A program made the translations under genes and the position numbers. From the IMG/VR virus record IMGVR_UViG_3300021963_000526, positions 1-27,929 of that record: a stretch of DNA of 27,929 nucleotides. The stretch is one strand, 5' to 3'. How positions within the stretch are numbered: position 1 is the first letter of the stretch; each line of letters opens with the position of its first letter. This DNA comes from a virus. Of this stretch, positions 7,433 to 13,442 are shown piece after piece. The notes beneath the pieces are model-generated. The model had not been told where the DNA came from. It did not search any database and was given only the letters and a program-made list of their open reading frames with translations.

Positions 7433-7719
7433 AGACCCCAGCTTGGCAGCGCAAGGAGGGCAAAAGCCCATCAGGCGGCTTAAATGCCAAGGGCCGCGCC
7501 AGCGCGAAGGCCGAGGGCATGAACTTAAAAGCGCCGGTCAAGTCTGGCGATAATCCAAGGCGGGCCAGCTTCTTGGCGCGCATGGGCAACATGCCTGGTC
7601 CAGAATACAAGGCAGGCGAGCCGACACGGCTGCTGCTGTCACTCAAGGCATGGGGCGCAAGCTCCAAGGCTGACGCCAAGGCAAAAGCCAAGGCAATATC
7701 TGCAAGGAACAAAAAATGA
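7429..7719 (+). CDS. Small basic protein upstream of portal, 96 aa
   Basis: Starts MKTPAWQRKEGKSPSGGLN and contains KSGDNPRRASFLARMGNMP and PTRLLLSLKAWGASSK. From memory, this is a conserved family in uncultured phages, found beside portal and terminase genes. It is Lys/Arg-rich with few acidic residues, consistent with binding DNA. ATGA overlap upstream and ATGA overlap with the portal gene downstream. No biochemical function is known to me. Confidence 0.75.
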   Translation: MKTPAWQRKEGKSPSGGLNAKGRASAKAEGMNLKAPVKSGDNPRRASFLARMGNMPGPEYKAGEPTRLLLSLKAWGASSKADAKAKAKAISARNKK

Positions 7720-9929
7720 ACGAATTAGAAATCAGCACCGACATTGCTGCCACACAGCCAATGGATGATGCAGAGCTGCAAGCCATCATCACGCAAGACC
7801 TGACCGATGCGGTGAGCTATGTGGACAGTGATCTATCCCCCACACGCGCCAAGGGGACTGAGTACTATCGCGGTGATTTATTCGGCAATGAGGTCGAAGG
7901 CAACAGCAAGGTGGTGGCCATGGAGGTGCGGGACACTGTCTCGGCCATGCTGCCAAGCCTGATGCGTGTGTTTTTCAATTCTGAGAATGTGGTCGAGTTT
8001 AGTCCCAGGGGACCTGAGGACATCAAGATGGCCCAACAGGCCACCGATTACGCTAATTACATTTTCCAAAACGACAATTCTGGATTTTTAACGACCTACG
8101 CAATCTTCAAGGATGCGCTGGTGCGCAAATGCGGCATTGCCAAATTTTGGTGGGAAGATGAGGAGAAGGTGCGGATTGAGGAGTACACCGGCCTTGATGA
8201 GCAGACGCTACAGATGCTGATGCAAGAGCCTGGTGGTGAGGTCAAGGTCATCACATCCTACCCAGACCCAGATGTCAATGAGGCGCAGCTGACAACAGTG
8301 GACCCCACAACTGGCGCGCCGATGGTTATGCCTGCACCAATGATCCATGATGTGCAAATCAAGCGTATCACAAAAGATGGCCGCATCAAGATCATGGCCG
8401 TGCCGCCAGAGGAGCTACTGCTAGACAGACGCGCTAGATCGTTTGACGATTCGACCATCATTGCCCACAGGCAGATGGCCACCATGGCTGACTTGCTGGC
8501 CATGGGCTATGACCAAGATGAGATTGAAGAGAATCTGTCAACGACAGACTTGGACAGCAACGATGAGTATTTGGCCCGTCAGCCGCTGAGTACAACATTT
8601 GGCACAAATGACGCCGCCAACCCGATGATGCGCAGGGTCTTGTACATCGAGGCTTACTCGCGTGTTGACTATGATGGCGATGGTATTGCAGAGCTTAGAA
8701 AAGTCTGCTGCATGGGTGGCGGCTATAAGGTGGTGCGCAATCTTCCAGCGAGCTATATCCCCTTTGCTGACTTCCCCTGCGACCCAGAGCCACACACAAG
8801 CCCACTTGAGGCGATGTCAATTTTTGACATTACCCGTGACTTGCAAGAGATCAAGTCTGAGATTCTCAGGAATACATTGGACAGCCTGGCCCAGAGCATT
8901 CACCCACGCACAGCGGTGGTCGAGGGTCAAGTCAATATTGATGATGTCTTGAACAATGAGACGGGCGCCATCATTCGGATGCGCGCGCCTGGCATGGTGC
9001 AGCCCCTGACAACCCCGTTTGTGGGGCAGGCCGCATTCCCGATGATGGAATACATGGACCAGATCAAGGAAGACCGCACCGGCATGAGCAAGGCGGCCAT
9101 GGGTCTGAATGCTGACGCATTGCAGTCAAGCACCAAGGCAGCTGTGGCAGCGACCATTTCAGCCAGCCAAGGCCGCATTGAGCTGACAGCGCGCATTTTG
9201 GCCGAGGGTATGAAAAAGCTATTTAAGGGCATTTTGTTCCTGGTCACAACGCACCAGGACAAGGCTCGCATGGTGCGGATGCGCAACGAGTGGGTGCAGA
9301 TCGATCCACGATTCTGGGATGCTGGCATGGATGCCACGATCAACATTGCTCTTGGCAATGGCGACACCAACGAGAAGCTGCAAGCGCTGATGATGATCAT
9401 GTCCAAGCAAGAGCAAATCTTGCAGCAGCTTGGCCCAACAAACCCATTGGTCACGCCAATGCAATTTAGCAACACTTTGCGAAAAGTGGTTGAGCTGTCT
9501 GGGTTCAAGGATTCAACGAGCTTTTTCCAAGACATCCCTGCCGACTACAAACCACCAGAGCCACCAGCGCCAAAGCCATCCCCAGAGGAGATTTTGGCCA
9601 AGGTGCAGGCAGAGTCTATCCAGGCAGATATCCAGAAAAAGGCAGCCGAGCTGGAGCTAAAGCGCCAGCAAATGCTTTTGGATGATGATTTGGCCCGTGA
9701 CAAGATGGCCCAAGATTTGTATCTCAAAAAGTATGAAATTGAGTTAAAGTACAAATCACAGATCAGTACAGCGGAAATTGATGCCGCGCAAAATATTGAT
9801 CGTGAAGCGATTCGTCAGCAGGCACTGCTGGCCCAGCAGCAAGCGGCGCAGCTTATGCAGCAGCCACAGCAGCAGCCACCAGCGCCTGAGATGATGCCCC
9901 CATCAACCTTTCAAGGAATGGCACAGTAA
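7716..9929 (+). CDS. Portal protein
   Basis: 737 residues, expected to form the ring at the single capsid vertex through which DNA enters and leaves. The N-terminal region (RAKGTEYYRGD, VAMEVRDTVSAMLPSLMRVFF) and later segments (DPEPHTSPLEAMSIFDITR, EDRTGMSKAAMGL) are typical of large podovirus-type portals. The C-terminal 150 residues are a charged coiled-coil (ELELKRQQMLLDDDLARDKM) ending in a Gln/Pro-rich tail (QQPQQQPPAPEMMPP), which may form the barrel reaching into the capsid. The position between packaging and scaffold genes fits. It ends directly before the next GTG start. Confidence 0.9.
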   Translation: MNELEISTDIAATQPMDDAELQAIITQDLTDAVSYVDSDLSPTRAKGTEYYRGDLFGNEVEGNSKVVAMEVRDTVSAMLPSLMRVFFNSENVVEFSPRGPEDIKMAQQATDYANYIFQNDNSGFLTTYAIFKDALVRKCGIAKFWWEDEEKVRIEEYTGLDEQTLQMLMQEPGGEVKVITSYPDPDVNEAQLTTVDPTTGAPMVMPAPMIHDVQIKRITKDGRIKIMAVPPEELLLDRRARSFDDSTIIAHRQMATMADLLAMGYDQDEIEENLSTTDLDSNDEYLARQPLSTTFGTNDAANPMMRRVLYIEAYSRVDYDGDGIAELRKVCCMGGGYKVVRNLPASYIPFADFPCDPEPHTSPLEAMSIFDITRDLQEIKSEILRNTLDSLAQSIHPRTAVVEGQVNIDDVLNNETGAIIRMRAPGMVQPLTTPFVGQAAFPMMEYMDQIKEDRTGMSKAAMGLNADALQSSTKAAVAATISASQGRIELTARILAEGMKKLFKGILFLVTTHQDKARMVRMRNEWVQIDPRFWDAGMDATINIALGNGDTNEKLQALMMIMSKQEQILQQLGPTNPLVTPMQFSNTLRKVVELSGFKDSTSFFQDIPADYKPPEPPAPKPSPEEILAKVQAESIQADIQKKAAELELKRQQMLLDDDLARDKMAQDLYLKKYEIELKYKSQISTAEIDAAQNIDREAIRQQALLAQQQAAQLMQQPQQQPPAPEMMPPSTFQGMAQ

Positions 9930-10201: not shown

Positions 10202-11182
10202 ATGGCAGAAACACAAGCAATGAATATGGCCGATGCGGCCAGTGCTATCTCGGCAATGTTGGCCCCTGAAAAAGGACAAGCGCAAGTTGACGAGACGCAG
10301 CCAGTCGAGGAGTCCCAAGAGGACACCGAGACAGCGGCTTCTGAGGAGGATGAGTCTGGTGTGGAAGACGCGCCAGATGAAGAGTCCTCAGAGGAACAGT
10401 CCGAAGAAGAGGAAGAGCAAGAGGAGCAAGAACAGCCACAGACTTTCACCGTCAAAGTAGACGGCAAGGAAGTCACAGTGACGCTAGACGAGCTTCAAAA
10501 AGGCTATTCCAGGACACAGGACTACACTCGGAAAACGCAGCAGATTGCCGAAGTGCGAAAGCAAGTCGAGCAAGAAACGCAGGCAGTCCGAGCCGAGCGT
10601 GAGCAGTACGCTCAATTGTTGGGAGCATTGCAAGCCCAACTTCAGTCTTCGGAGCCTCAAGTTGATTTGGAGCGCCTCTATCACGAGGACCCAATTGAAT
10701 GGGTAAGGCAAAAGGAAATCATGCGCGAGAGGCAAGAAAAACTCGGTGCTATTCAGTCTGAACAGCAGCGGCTTTTTCAAGTGTCTCAGTATGAGCAGCA
10801 GCGCGCTATGGAGGCCCAACTTGCCAGCCAGCAAGAAGCCTTATTAGCCGCTTTGCCAGATTGGAAGGACCCCAAGAAGGCAAAGGCCGAAAAGGCACTG
10901 GTGATTGAGTCTGCAAAGGCAGCAGGCTTTACCGATGAAGATTTGAAGAATGTTTACGACCACCGGCTGGTCTTGTTGTTGCGTAAAGCAGCAATGTTTG
11001 ACCAAATGGTAAGTAAGCGTCAAGGCATTAAGCCTGTGGTGAACAATGGCCCACGAACAGCCAAGCCTGGTGCAGCTGGTCGGGTTTCGACAACAACTGA
11101 AAGTACGCGAGCAAAGCAGCGTCTTGCAAAAACCGGTCGCATCGATGATGCGGCTTCTGCAATTGAACTTTTATTGAAATGA
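10202..11182 (+). CDS. Capsid scaffolding protein
   Basis: 326 residues. The N-terminal quarter is extremely acidic (repeated EDE and EEEEEQEE tracts). A short globular segment FTVKVDGKEVTVTLDEL and GYSRTQDYTRKTQQI follows, and then a long Gln/Glu-rich coiled coil (residues about 105-230). The C-terminus is basic (TRAKQRLAKTGRIDDAASA). The VDGKEVTVTLDELQKGYSRTQ stretch is characteristic, from memory, of podovirus-type scaffold proteins, which guide capsid assembly and then leave. The location between portal and major capsid genes supports this. No protease domain is seen. Confidence 0.85.
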   Translation: MAETQAMNMADAASAISAMLAPEKGQAQVDETQPVEESQEDTETAASEEDESGVEDAPDEESSEEQSEEEEEQEEQEQPQTFTVKVDGKEVTVTLDELQKGYSRTQDYTRKTQQIAEVRKQVEQETQAVRAEREQYAQLLGALQAQLQSSEPQVDLERLYHEDPIEWVRQKEIMRERQEKLGAIQSEQQRLFQVSQYEQQRAMEAQLASQQEALLAALPDWKDPKKAKAEKALVIESAKAAGFTDEDLKNVYDHRLVLLLRKAAMFDQMVSKRQGIKPVVNNGPRTAKPGAAGRVSTTTESTRAKQRLAKTGRIDDAASAIELLLK

Positions 11183-11189
11183 GGAAATT

Positions 11190-12419
11190 ATGGCTATCGT
11201 TAGCAATACATTTTTAACCTACTCTGCAAAGGGTATCCGCGAAGACTTGAGCAATGTGATTACAAACATTTCTCCAGAAGAAACCCCTTACATGAGCAAC
11301 ATTGGCCGCGAGAATGTGTCCAACAGCTTGTACGAGTGGCAGACAGACCAACTTTCTAGTGCCGCCGCAAATGCGCAGCTGGAAGGTGACGATGTCGCGT
11401 CTTTTGATGCGGTGACAGCTACTGTGCGTTTGCAAAACTACGCACAGATTTCACGCAAGACAATCATCTTGTCAGCCACTGAAGAAGTGGTGAACAAGGC
11501 TGGTCGTCGCAGTGAGCTGGCCTACCAAATCGCGAAGCGCGGCGCGGAAATTAAACGTGACCAAGAATTCTCCATGCTCAATGGCGCCATCGCTGTTGCT
11601 GGTGATTCGACAACTGCTCGCACCACTGCCTCTTTGGGCGCGTTTGTGAAAACGAACACCGACAAAGGCTCTAGCGGTGCTGACCCATCTTACACAACGC
11701 TGCCAAACAGCGCCCGTACAGATGGCACAGTGCGCACATTTACTGAAACCATTCTCAAGAATGTGATTCAGAAGGTGTGGACACAAGGTGGTACACCTAA
11801 GATTCTGATGTGCGGTCCTGTCAACAAGCAGCGCGTGTCTGGTTTCTCTGGTATTGCTTCCAGCCGTTTCAACATTGATGGAGGCGCAAAGCCAGCAACC
11901 CTCGTGGGCGCTGTCGATATCTACGTTAACTAATGGCGTCGATAAGCAGTAATGCTTATTTGTAACTGGGTGAATTCGGTGAACCTCCTAACTGTCAAGC
12001 CGGACAAAGGACAATACCGAGCCAAGCCGAGAAATCGGAAGGTGTAACGACTAGAGGCGGGAGCCTCGTAGGACCAAGCGGTCCGAAGTGCCCAGCCCCT
12101 CATAGTGAGGGTGAAGAGATAGTCTGATCTACCAGGTAACTGGTAGCCTCGAAAGAGGGATGAGAGGGTAGCGAATCTCATTTAACATTGATGCAGTGAT
12201 TTCGGCAATGTGCAAGTGATTGCAAATCGTTTCCAACGTGAGCGCGATGCATGGGTGATCGATCCTGACTACGCAAAGATGACTGTGCTGCGCCCTTACA
12301 GCCAAGTCGAATTGGCGAAGACTGGTGACGCTGAAAAGCGCATGTTGATCGTTGAGTGGGGTCACAAAGTGTTGGCTGAAAACGCCCACGGCTTGGCCGC
12401 TGACTTGGTTACTTCTTAA
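11190..12419 (+). CDS. Major capsid protein, gene split by a group I intron
   Basis: The coding sequence is join(11190-11926, 12194-12419), giving 320 residues. Exon 1 encodes residues 1-245 plus two bases of codon 246. Exon 2 completes it as GTC and continues VSDFGNVQVIANRF to the stop at 12417-12419. The protein resembles HK97-fold capsid proteins of the DUF5309 (SU10-like) family: start MAIVSNTFLTYSAKGIRED, ISPEETPYMSNIG, then TKTAT-like strands; the C-terminal RFQRERDAWVIDPDY is family-typical. Without splicing, translation enters the intron and stops at 11931-11933 (247 residues). AGGAAA precedes the ATG. The piece beginning with GTG at 12210 is exon 2, not a separate gene. Confidence 0.88.
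11927..12193 (+). ncRNA. Group I self-splicing intron in the capsid gene
   Basis: A 267-nt ribozyme with all core helices drawn by hand. P1 pairs exon 11918-11926 with guide 11936-11944; splice-site U11926 faces G11936. P2 is ATAAGCA/TGCTTAT with a GTAA loop (11942-11959). P3 is CTGGG 11966-11970 with CCCAG 12091-12095. P4 is TCGGT 11976-11980 with ACCGA 12016-12020. P6 is CCGA-GAAA-TCGG (12027-12038). P7 is GACTA 12049-12053 with TAGTC 12120-12124. P7.1 (12054-12067) and P7.2 (12071-12084) suggest subgroup IA. P8 is 12097-12111 and P9 is 12129-12146, with GAAA and other hairpins to 12181. The last base is G12193. No endonuclease ORF is inside. Confidence 0.93.
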
Positions 12420-12465: not shown

Positions 12466-12783
12466 ATGATTCACAAAAGACTATTTAGCGAAAACAAAGA
12501 TCAAGGCATCAAGCGCTACTGGCATGAAAACCCAGAAACAGGCGATGTGACGATCCAGACAGAGCAAGATGTGACTGCTGTCATTGAGGCCAACAAGGCC
12601 ATCTATAACGCCCAAGACGAAAAAGCCAACTGGAAGGGTGAATGGCACTTGGTCGCATCCATCCCCGAATCCCTTTATTACAAGATGAAGGCCGAGGGCA
12701 AGATCGATGATCAGGAATACATGAAGCGCTGGCTAAACGACAGCGACAACCAATTTTTTAGAACTAGACCTGGGAAAATATGA
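12466..12783 (+). CDS. Conserved virion-block protein of unknown function
   Basis: 105 residues, MIHKRLFSENKDQGIKRYW at the start and LNDSDNQFFRTRPGKI at the end. The ending, with VASIPESLYYKM before it, matches a small family found, from memory, immediately after capsid genes in many environmental podoviruses. Its role is not known to me. The ATG lies only two bases after the terminator T-run, and no Shine-Dalgarno is present, so translation initiation looks unusual. It ends with an ATGA overlap with the glycosyltransferase gene. Confidence 0.75.
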   Translation: MIHKRLFSENKDQGIKRYWHENPETGDVTIQTEQDVTAVIEANKAIYNAQDEKANWKGEWHLVASIPESLYYKMKAEGKIDDQEYMKRWLNDSDNQFFRTRPGKI

Positions 12784-13442
12784 GCAATTATGTTGCAGTC
12801 TGCACACCGGCCCGTGATCAAGTCCACACGAACTATTGCTATTGCATGGTCAACATGGTGGCGTATCACACACTCAACACCGAAGACGCGATTAGTCTGA
12901 AATTGATGCAAGGCACTATTATCCAAAACCAAAGGGCTGACCTTTGTTTGGATGCGATGGCCGAGGGCTGCACACACATTCTCTTCATTGACTCGGACAT
13001 GACATTCCCCCAAGACATGGTGGGAAGGCTCTTGGCCCACGACAAAGATATTGTGGCGGCCAACTGCGCCAGGCGCAGAATGCCCACTGGCCCGACAGCT
13101 CAAGACTATGATGAGAACGACAAACGCATTCCCGTCTACACCATGCCAGAATCAACTGGATTGCAAGAGGTGGGAAGCATTGGCACTGGCATAATGCTGA
13201 TCAAGCGCAGGGTGTTTGAGGGCATGAGCGAGCCATGGTTTGATATGCCGTGGCAGACCACACGGGGCTACATGGGTGAGGATGTGTTCTTTTGTAGAAA
13301 AGCCAGAGAGCTTGGCTTTAAGGTCTACATCGACCATGATGTCTCGCACGAAATTGGTCACATTGGGACCTTTGAGTTTGGCCACCCTCACACTTGGATT
13401 GTGAAAGAAGAGATGGAAAAAGAGGCGAAAAATGGCACTTAG
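12780..13442 (+). CDS. GT-A fold glycosyltransferase
   Basis: 220 residues. Features of a GT2-like GT-A enzyme are the N-terminal strand YVAVCTPARDQVH, the nucleotide-sugar metal-binding motif LFIDSDM (D71-S72-D73) and the sequence VGSIGTGIMLIKRRVFEGM, then GYMGEDVFFCRKARELGFKVYIDH with the ED and final His. It would transfer a sugar from a nucleotide donor. The acceptor is not shown. Lying inside the head and tail block, it may modify a virion protein, or act on host surface or DNA. ATGA overlap with the gene before; 11-nt overlap with the following fragment. Confidence 0.8.
   Translation: MSNYVAVCTPARDQVHTNYCYCMVNMVAYHTLNTEDAISLKLMQGTIIQNQRADLCLDAMAEGCTHILFIDSDMTFPQDMVGRLLAHDKDIVAANCARRRMPTGPTAQDYDENDKRIPVYTMPESTGLQEVGSIGTGIMLIKRRVFEGMSEPWFDMPWQTTRGYMGEDVFFCRKARELGFKVYIDHDVSHEIGHIGTFEFGHPHTWIVKEEMEKEAKNGT

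What the first reader, a model, noticed from the sequence alone, without database searches (positions are those of the whole stretch)
11190..12419. Major capsid gene split by a compact group I intron
Exon 1 stops early and exon 2 carries the missing capsid C-terminus. Between them lies a 267-nt segment with P1, P2, P3, P4, P6, P7, P7.1, P7.2, P8 and P9. Only one junction satisfies all rules at once: 5' cut after U11926, which faces G11936 in P1, and 3' cut after G12193. It restores one frame reading YVSDFGNVQ, with a split codon GT|C. The insertion point lies in a family-conserved stretch, typical of group I intron targets. Introns in phage are mostly known in DNA metabolism or lysis genes; an intron in the capsid gene, the most heavily expressed one, is notable.
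Basis: partly seen in the sequence, partly recalled or inferred. Interest (0 to 1): 0.92.

Follow-up and report, generated by a model that had tools for sequence, protein, structure and literature searches.

The report
Group I intron splitting phage capsid gene
A short self-splicing RNA element interrupts the main shell-protein gene of an uncultured phage, and the DNA around it shows that it came into this lineage by gene conversion from a related phage.

Summary
Rfam RF00028 scores 80.7 bits at 11917-12146. Removing 11927-12193 restores a 320-aa SU10-type major capsid protein (PF17236, 3-291/292), 319/320 identical to uninterrupted homologs L002 and L003. The 80 best viral-contig relatives kept are uninterrupted and read YVSDFGN across the site. 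A 19-row alignment supports the fold (96.9% of cells paired; 38 of 73 pairs changed on both sides), and exon and guide co-vary.

Related introns occupy two more sites in the same gene, and two contigs carry all three. Against its intron-less sister the window has 27 silent differences in 117 coding nt around the junction and 13 in the other 843; the tract is 3/117 from distant carriers. That is a co-conversion tract, so the intron was acquired horizontally. The intron encodes no endonuclease, and none of five endonuclease families searched tracks with it.

Capsid-gene group I introns are already published (LittleE, Tuc2009, crAss-like phages), so this is a new member of a known kind. Splicing itself is inferred, not shown.

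The parts
11190..11926 (+). exon 1 of the major capsid gene (SU10_MCP)
   Evidence: the unspliced ORF matches PF17236 positions 3-220, the spliced product 3-291 of 292
11927..12193 (+). group I intron, 267 nt, no sense ORF of 60 aa or more; IA2-like by its P7.1 and P7.2 (subgroup name recalled)
   Evidence: RF00028 80.7 bits; borders from the splice and from 41 loci including the window's own
12194..12419 (+). exon 2 of the major capsid gene with stop
11923..11939 (+). P1: exon ACGU 11923-11926 with guide GCGU 11936-11939; U11926.G11936 at the 5' splice site
   Evidence: guide and exon change together in L111 and in site A introns (read)
11943..11958 (+). P2
   Evidence: 5 of 6 pairs with two-sided change
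11966..12095 (+). P3 (11966-11970 with 12091-12095)
   Evidence: 100% of cells paired, 2 of 5 pairs with two-sided change
11976..12020 (+). P4 (11976-11981 with 12015-12020), enclosing P5 (11986-11989 with 12008-12011) and a further hairpin at 11993-12006
   Evidence: P4 4 of 6 and P5 3 of 4 pairs with two-sided change; the inner hairpin is the weakest helix, 80.3% of cells paired
12021..12043 (+). P6 and P6a (12027-12038)
   Evidence: P6 never varies; P6a 3 of 4 pairs with two-sided change
12049..12124 (+). P7 (12049-12053 with 12120-12124), enclosing P7.1 (12054-12067), P7.2 (12071-12084) and P8 (12097-12111)
   Evidence: P7 invariant and fully paired; P7.1 2 of 5, P7.2 3 of 5, P8 1 of 6 pairs with two-sided change
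12129..12181 (+). P9 (12129-12146), P9.1 (12147-12158), P9.2 (12160-12181)
   Evidence: P9 5 of 7, P9.1 2 of 4, P9.2 4 of 6 pairs with two-sided change
12193..12193 (+). terminal G of the intron
   Evidence: invariant in 19 of 19 rows
11856..11926 (+). 5' part of the co-conversion tract (codons 223-246)
   Evidence: 27 of 117 coding nt in codons 223-261 differ from the intron-less sister L238, 13 of 843 elsewhere; 3 of 117 from L093, L083, L097
12194..12239 (+). 3' part of the co-conversion tract (codons 246-261)
10202..11182 (+). head scaffolding protein gene just upstream
   Evidence: phrog_3927 E 1.2e-60
7716..9929 (+). portal protein gene (SU10_portal)
   Evidence: PF23899 680.9 bits

Best explanation
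It is a real, small group I intron without an endonuclease gene, with P7.1 and P7.2, inserted at codon 246 of the major capsid gene of an uncultured SU10-like tailed phage. It is expected to excise itself after transcription: guanosine attacks after U11926, then exon 1 attacks after G12193, joining GT|C and yielding the 320-aa capsid protein. The reading frame ends within the first seven intron bases, so unspliced message makes a truncated 247-aa capsid. The intron came into this lineage by DNA-level gene conversion from another intron-carrying phage, bringing about 117 nt of silent flanking exon variants. Shown here by sequence: ribozyme fold, restored protein, empty sites, covariation, horizontal acquisition with a co-conversion tract. 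Inferred: splicing in vivo, and what makes the DNA break. An endonuclease acting in trans, or ordinary phage recombination during co-infection, are both possible.
For: RF00028 80.7 bits. Spliced product matches PF17236 at 3-291 of 292. The 80 best homologs kept are continuous, 80 of 80, and read YVSDFGN, 80 of 80; L002 and L003 are identical in 319 of 320 residues, the difference being S162G, far from the junction. Covariation: 96.9% of 1361 cells paired against 84.9% in shuffles and 33-42% when slid; 38 of 73 pairs with two-sided change, 0 of 500 shuffles as high. Guide and exon co-vary: ACGU/GCGU, ACCU/GGGU in L111, GCCU/GGGC at site A. 40 other contigs carry it at the same site with both borders. 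On a capsid tree without the junctions, presence needs at least 20 changes, 16 forced by starred branches (31 carriers of 157 rows). Co-conversion. Intron 0.959 identical to L113 whose distal exons are 0.72 identical, but 0.88 to L139 whose exons are 0.795 identical.
Against: No RNA or biochemical data, so splicing is not shown. Intron-less pairs also differ somewhat more near the site (179/3200 against 879/27511 elsewhere; 9 of 32 pairs at p<0.01), so the locus recombines or varies there even without the intron. L238's tract is close to L232, L005 and L003 (3-6 of 117) but not to L004 (12), L007 (21) and L221 (23), so the tract also varies among intron-less neighbours. No endonuclease was found to drive homing. 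P1 and P10 pairing restrict a few flanking bases, though not the whole tract. The tree is a quick one, and some rows have long branches.
Confidence: 0.94

Rival explanations
1. The capsid gene is simply truncated or broken: the 247-aa product is the real capsid, or the insert is an assembly or decay artefact.
For: Exon 1 alone is an open 247-aa ORF covering PF17236 3-220.
Against: 80 of the 80 best homologs kept run full length; the insert is a conserved, covarying ribozyme; 40 other contigs carry a related insert at the same base; exon 2 is intact.
Confidence: 0.02
2. Endonuclease-driven homing in trans: a free-standing homing endonuclease, in this genome's unsequenced part or in co-infecting phages, cuts the empty site and the intron is copied in during repair (collaborative homing).
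For: Short silent co-conversion tract around the site; collaborative homing is described in PMC10448857 (passages); HNH_3 and LAGLIDADG_2 genes lie beside introns in the phrog_1357 capsid relative L123.
Against: HNH_3 in 4 of 29 intron-carrying and 3 of 20 intron-less records; GIY-YIG 0 of 49, LAGLIDADG_3 0 of 49, T5orf172 0 of 29, HNH (PF01844) 0 of 49 over cut-off, 1 below it. Among 10 intron-carrying and 10 intron-less genomes the only frames in all 10 and none are readings of the intron; the next are in 8 against 1 (an out-of-frame reading inside a 492-aa ORF), 6 against 1 (spanin-like) and several in 5 against 0.
Confidence: 0.45
3. Passive spread: no targeted break; the intron is an old allele that moves by ordinary homologous recombination between co-infecting phages and is kept because splicing makes it nearly neutral.
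For: No associated endonuclease gene found; low frequency in an exon-based sample (1 of 116 at this site); some excess divergence at the site also in intron-less pairs.
Against: Differences concentrate at the insertion in 7 of 8 carrier and sister pairs at p<0.001 and in the eighth at p=0.024; 145/800 near against 277/6793 elsewhere. Introns at three sites of one gene need an origin for the insertions.
Confidence: 0.4
4. RNA-level spread by reverse splicing and reverse transcription.
For: Explains how related introns could seed new sites A, B and C without an endonuclease.
Against: At this site flanking exon DNA moved with the intron, which reverse splicing of the intron RNA would not carry.
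Confidence: 0.05

Closest known systems
Mycobacteriophage LittleE major capsid intron (Pope et al. 2013, PMC3706429; passages read)
   Same: Intron in a phage major capsid gene, U at the end of exon 1 and G at the end of the intron, intron-less relatives exist; splicing shown there by RT-PCR and protein sequencing
   Different: 819-bp insertion with an endonuclease ORF on the opposite strand, HK97-like capsid of a large-genome temperate siphovirus; type given there as most likely group I. Here 267 nt, no endonuclease, SU10-type capsid
crAss-like phage MCP introns (PMC7886860; passages read)
   Same: Several group I introns in one MCP gene (an MCP ORF in five fragments)
   Different: Found there mainly by their endonuclease domains, in gut phages; the introns here carry none and lie in other capsid families
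BAKA and Optimus minor tail gene intron (PMC3706429, passages)
   Same: 265-bp structural-gene intron without an endonuclease gene; splicing shown by RT-PCR for BAKA
   Different: Tail gene, shares a 156-bp segment with the LittleE intron; no co-conversion analysis in the passages I read
Collaborative homing, e.g. ICP1 terminase, and cyanophage psbA as cited there (PMC10448857, passages)
   Same: Intron without its own endonuclease that can still home
   Different: There a free-standing endonuclease gene adjoins the target; none is seen here
Jug phage small group I introns (PMC12363816 preprint, passages)
   Same: Short group I introns, about 206 nt on average
   Different: Huge gut phages with about 18.5 introns per genome in many genes; here RF00028 hits fall only in the capsid gene in nine carrier records over 30 kb

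Membership tests
Group I intron (RF00028) | covariance-model score over the gathering cut-off | tested here: met
   80.7 bits against 50
Group I intron (RF00028) | conserved core P3-P8 and P4-P6 supported by covariation | tested here: met
   P3, P4, P5, P6a, P8 with two-sided changes, P6 and P7 invariant and always paired; 96.9% of cells paired over all helices
Group I intron (RF00028) | U.G pair at the 5' splice site formed with an internal guide | tested here: met
   U11926.G11936; guide co-varies with exon
Group I intron (RF00028) | intron ends in G | tested here: met
   G12193 invariant in 19 of 19
Group I intron (RF00028) | excision joins a functional reading frame | tested here: met
   full PF17236 match; 319 of 320 residues identical to intron-less alleles L002 and L003
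Group I intron (RF00028) | guanosine-dependent self-splicing | not testable with these tools
   needs in vitro transcription
Subgroup IA2 (definition recalled) | P7.1 and P7.2 between P7 and P3 | tested here: met
   P7.1 12054-12067 and P7.2 12071-12084, 100% of cells paired in both
Mobile (homing) group I intron | encodes a homing endonuclease | tested here: not met
   no sense ORF of 60 aa or more inside; the 83-aa antisense frame has no Pfam or PHROG match
Mobile (homing) group I intron | horizontal spread with co-conversion of flanking exon | tested here: met
SU10-type major capsid protein (PF17236) | full-length profile match | tested here: met
   312 bits, 3-291 of 292

The most novel reading that the evidence does not exclude
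A lineage of endonuclease-free group I introns is specialised on phage capsid genes, with up to three per gene in SU10-type capsids and relatives in three other capsid families, and it spreads between phages by targeted gene conversion driven by a nuclease in trans that no family searched here recognises.
Probability: 0.22. Interest if true: 0.75.

Novelty: new member of a known kind. Interest (0 to 1): 0.5.

Why it matters
It gives a clear natural record of intron transfer in a phage capsid gene: a close intron-less sister, a silent tract of about 117 nt, and carriers that resemble the donor. It also shows one capsid gene holding introns at up to three sites with no endonuclease gene of the searched families tracking with them, which makes the question of how endonuclease-free introns spread in wild phages testable. 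Practically, the capsid gene of such a phage appears as two ORFs, which can mislead capsid-based phage surveys.

Tried and rejected
Broken-gene or assembly artefact: rejected by full-length homologs, covariation and 40 other carriers. Endonuclease inside the intron: none. Endonuclease associated with carriers: HNH_3, HNH, GIY-YIG and LAGLIDADG_3 searched in 49 records, T5orf172 in 29, and gene content compared between 10 carrying genomes (the window included) and 10 intron-less ones, without an association. That comparison used open frames of 60 codons or more with tblastn at 1e-5 and would miss small or fast-evolving nucleases, and several records, the window among them, are fragments. LAGLIDADG_1 and LAGLIDADG_2, PD-(D/E)XK and EDxHD nucleases were not searched across the records.

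First automatic border search gave wrong borders for loci with indels near the site; replaced by the border pattern, whose site B part failed, so site B borders rest. For 4 loci (L113, L115, L130, L132) the pattern gave a second, longer candidate starting 25 nt upstream, and at site A shorter candidates as well; I dropped these. Eight contigs (L089, L107, L118, L126, L128, L138, L140, L141) show exon 2 only and were left out of 5'-side counts. In one search some junction codons were read from the intron; one search repeats it with exact borders. One search missed the site A intron of L206 because a tblastn piece read into the intron; one search shows it. I first took L002 and L003 as 100% identical from the rounded column; one search gives 319 of 320. 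The eight carrier and sister pairs were picked by me from the tree; the other carriers were not tried.

An 83-aa antisense frame over the intron (11930-12181) appears as "conserved" only because the intron is; no family match.

The bacterial and archaeal scan (61 records, pattern slightly wider than) shows that the core motif also occurs outside phages: 20 of 61 loci hold 16S or 23S motifs (motifs recalled). So the core motif as such is not capsid-specific.

Full report
What is there. The window is a 27,929-base virus record with terminase, SU10-type portal, scaffold and capsid genes in order. The capsid ORF at 11190 stops at 11933 after 247 aa. RF00028 matches 11917-12146 with 80.7 bits; it is the only group I hit in the record. 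Removing 11927-12193 gives a 320-aa protein that matches PF17236 over 3-291 of 292; the unspliced ORF reaches only 220.

Empty sites. L002 and L003 agree with the spliced product in 319 of 320 residues, with DNA 95.8 and 95.5% identical. In the phage collection 323 records match and 320 cover at least 80% of the query in one place; the best is a Manatee Spring phage at 69.1%.

Splice sites. G12193 is invariant in 19 of 19 introns and the base after it varies as a third codon position (C, T or G in different relatives). The exon end and the guide change together: ACGU with GCGU in the window, ACCU with GGGU in L111, GCCU with GGGC in the site A introns (read). The first base of exon 2 is C opposite G11935 here and U opposite A in L121, a plausible two-base P10; that first pair does not form in L111. 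G12190 and G12196 would also keep the frame, but are excluded by the homologs.

Fold. On alignment A1 (15 site C and 4 site A introns) 96.9% of 1361 cells pair, against 84.9% in shuffles and 33-42% when slid; 38 of 73 pairs have two-sided changes, 0 of 500 shuffles as high. The measure "further pair types" did not exceed shuffles (297 of 500 as high). P1 breaks at two pairs in four rows, the site A rows, where the alignment is shifted by one column. The structure was drawn on the window sequence, so the percentage paired leans towards it.

Distribution. A scan for the 5' border gave 21 contigs, and a scan for a core motif that contains no exon sequence gave 61, including all 21. By tblastn 50 of the 61 hold the SU10-type capsid gene beside the motif. 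Forty contigs besides the window's have the site C intron with both borders. Two further sites in the same gene carry related introns: site A near residue 29 (full introns in L086, L088, L096, L101, L102, L132, L136, L172, L206) and site B near residue 112 (L088, L096, L100, L110, L127, L130, L133, L135, L155, L201, L225, L232). L088 and L096 carry all three. In nine carrier records over 30 kb, RF00028 hits fall only in the capsid gene; 0 of 28 intron-less records tested have a hit.

Other host genes of the core motif. Of the remaining 11 of 61 contigs, eight lie in other major capsid genes: three in phrog_247 (L117 was scanned; L108 and L114 have closely similar flanking translations), one in phrog_9953 (L112), and four in phrog_1357 (L122 and L123 were scanned; L106 and L134 share their flanking translations). 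The rest are one terminase gene with two introns (L104), one virion protein (L120, 35 bits, below the cut-off), and one contig whose host gene I did not identify, with an HNH ORF (L137). Most of the 61 are one capsid family, so they are not independent. In cellular genomes a near-identical motif occurs elsewhere; 20 of 61 loci hold rRNA motifs.

Horizontal acquisition. On a quick tree of capsid codons without the three junctions (157 rows, 31 carriers) presence at site C needs at least 20 changes, 16 forced by starred branches; the label is still more clustered than in shuffles (mean 28.8, 0 of 500 as low). The window's nearest row is the intron-less L238, the same sequence as L002, at 98%. 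The two differ at 27 of 117 nt in codons 223-261, all silent, but at 13 of 843 elsewhere. The window's tract is 3 of 117 from the carriers L083, L093 and L097, while L093 is 132 of 843 away elsewhere; the closest intron-less tracts are 16 away (L006, L221). L238's tract is 3 to 6 of 117 from its intron-less relatives L232, L005 and L003, but 12 from L004, 21 from L007 and 23 from L221. The simplest reading is that the window's lineage received the intron with its flanks. Eight carrier and sister pairs show 145/800 differences within 50 nt against 277/6793 elsewhere (7 of 8 at p<0.001); 32 intron-less control pairs show 179/3200 against 879/27511, and 9 of 32 reach p<0.01, so the control is not flat. 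Across 25 carriers and 88 intron-less alleles over 85% identical to the window, near-copies removed, net divergence peaks at codons 233-252. Intron and exon similarities are also incongruent for some rows, although over all 820 pairs they correlate (r 0.82).

What moves it. The intron has no endonuclease. HNH_3 occurs in 4 of 29 carrier and 3 of 20 intron-less records; GIY-YIG and LAGLIDADG_3 in 0 of 49; HNH over cut-off in 0 of 49 (one intron-less record below it); T5orf172 in 0 of 29. Among 10 carrier and 10 intron-less genomes the only frames found in all 10 against none are readings of the intron; the next best include further readings of the introns, an out-of-frame reading (8 against 1), a spanin-like frame (6 against 1) and several unidentified frames (5 against 0). 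Trans homing and passive recombination therefore remain open. Reverse splicing does not explain the co-converted flanks.

What is known. Capsid-gene introns are in print for LittleE, and cited there for Tuc2009 (PMC3706429, passages), and for crAss-like phages, with one MCP ORF in five fragments (PMC7886860, passages). A structural gene with three introns is known in ICP1 (tape measure; PMC10448857, passages). I found no paper on an intron in a DUF5309 capsid: the listing puts papers with more terms first and its best hold only two of DUF5309, intron and phage (related searches). The verdict is a new member of a known kind with an unusually clear record of transfer.

Noticed in passing
L088, L096: One capsid gene with three group I introns (residues about 29, 112 and 246), each about 260-320 nt
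   Followed up: partly
L123:3647-7300 (also L106, L134, L122): Capsid gene of another family (phrog_1357) with two or more group I introns; in L123 the second one seems to hold ORF pieces without a family match, and LAGLIDADG_2 and HNH_3 genes lie next to it on the opposite strand
   Followed up: partly
L104:511-1127: Two group I introns in a terminase large subunit gene, their model matches separated by 117 nt
   Followed up: no
L108, L114, L117, L112: Introns with the same core motif in major head genes phrog_247 and phrog_9953
   Followed up: no
L332: Sporosarcina quadrami contig with three group I introns within 2.7 kb, two with equal scores
   Followed up: no
window 12780-13442: ORF with a glycosyltransferase-like match (Anp1, phrog_12406) between head genes
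   Followed up: no
site C in intron-less alleles: Intron-less pairs also show some excess divergence near the site, perhaps from recombination or past intron loss
   Followed up: no
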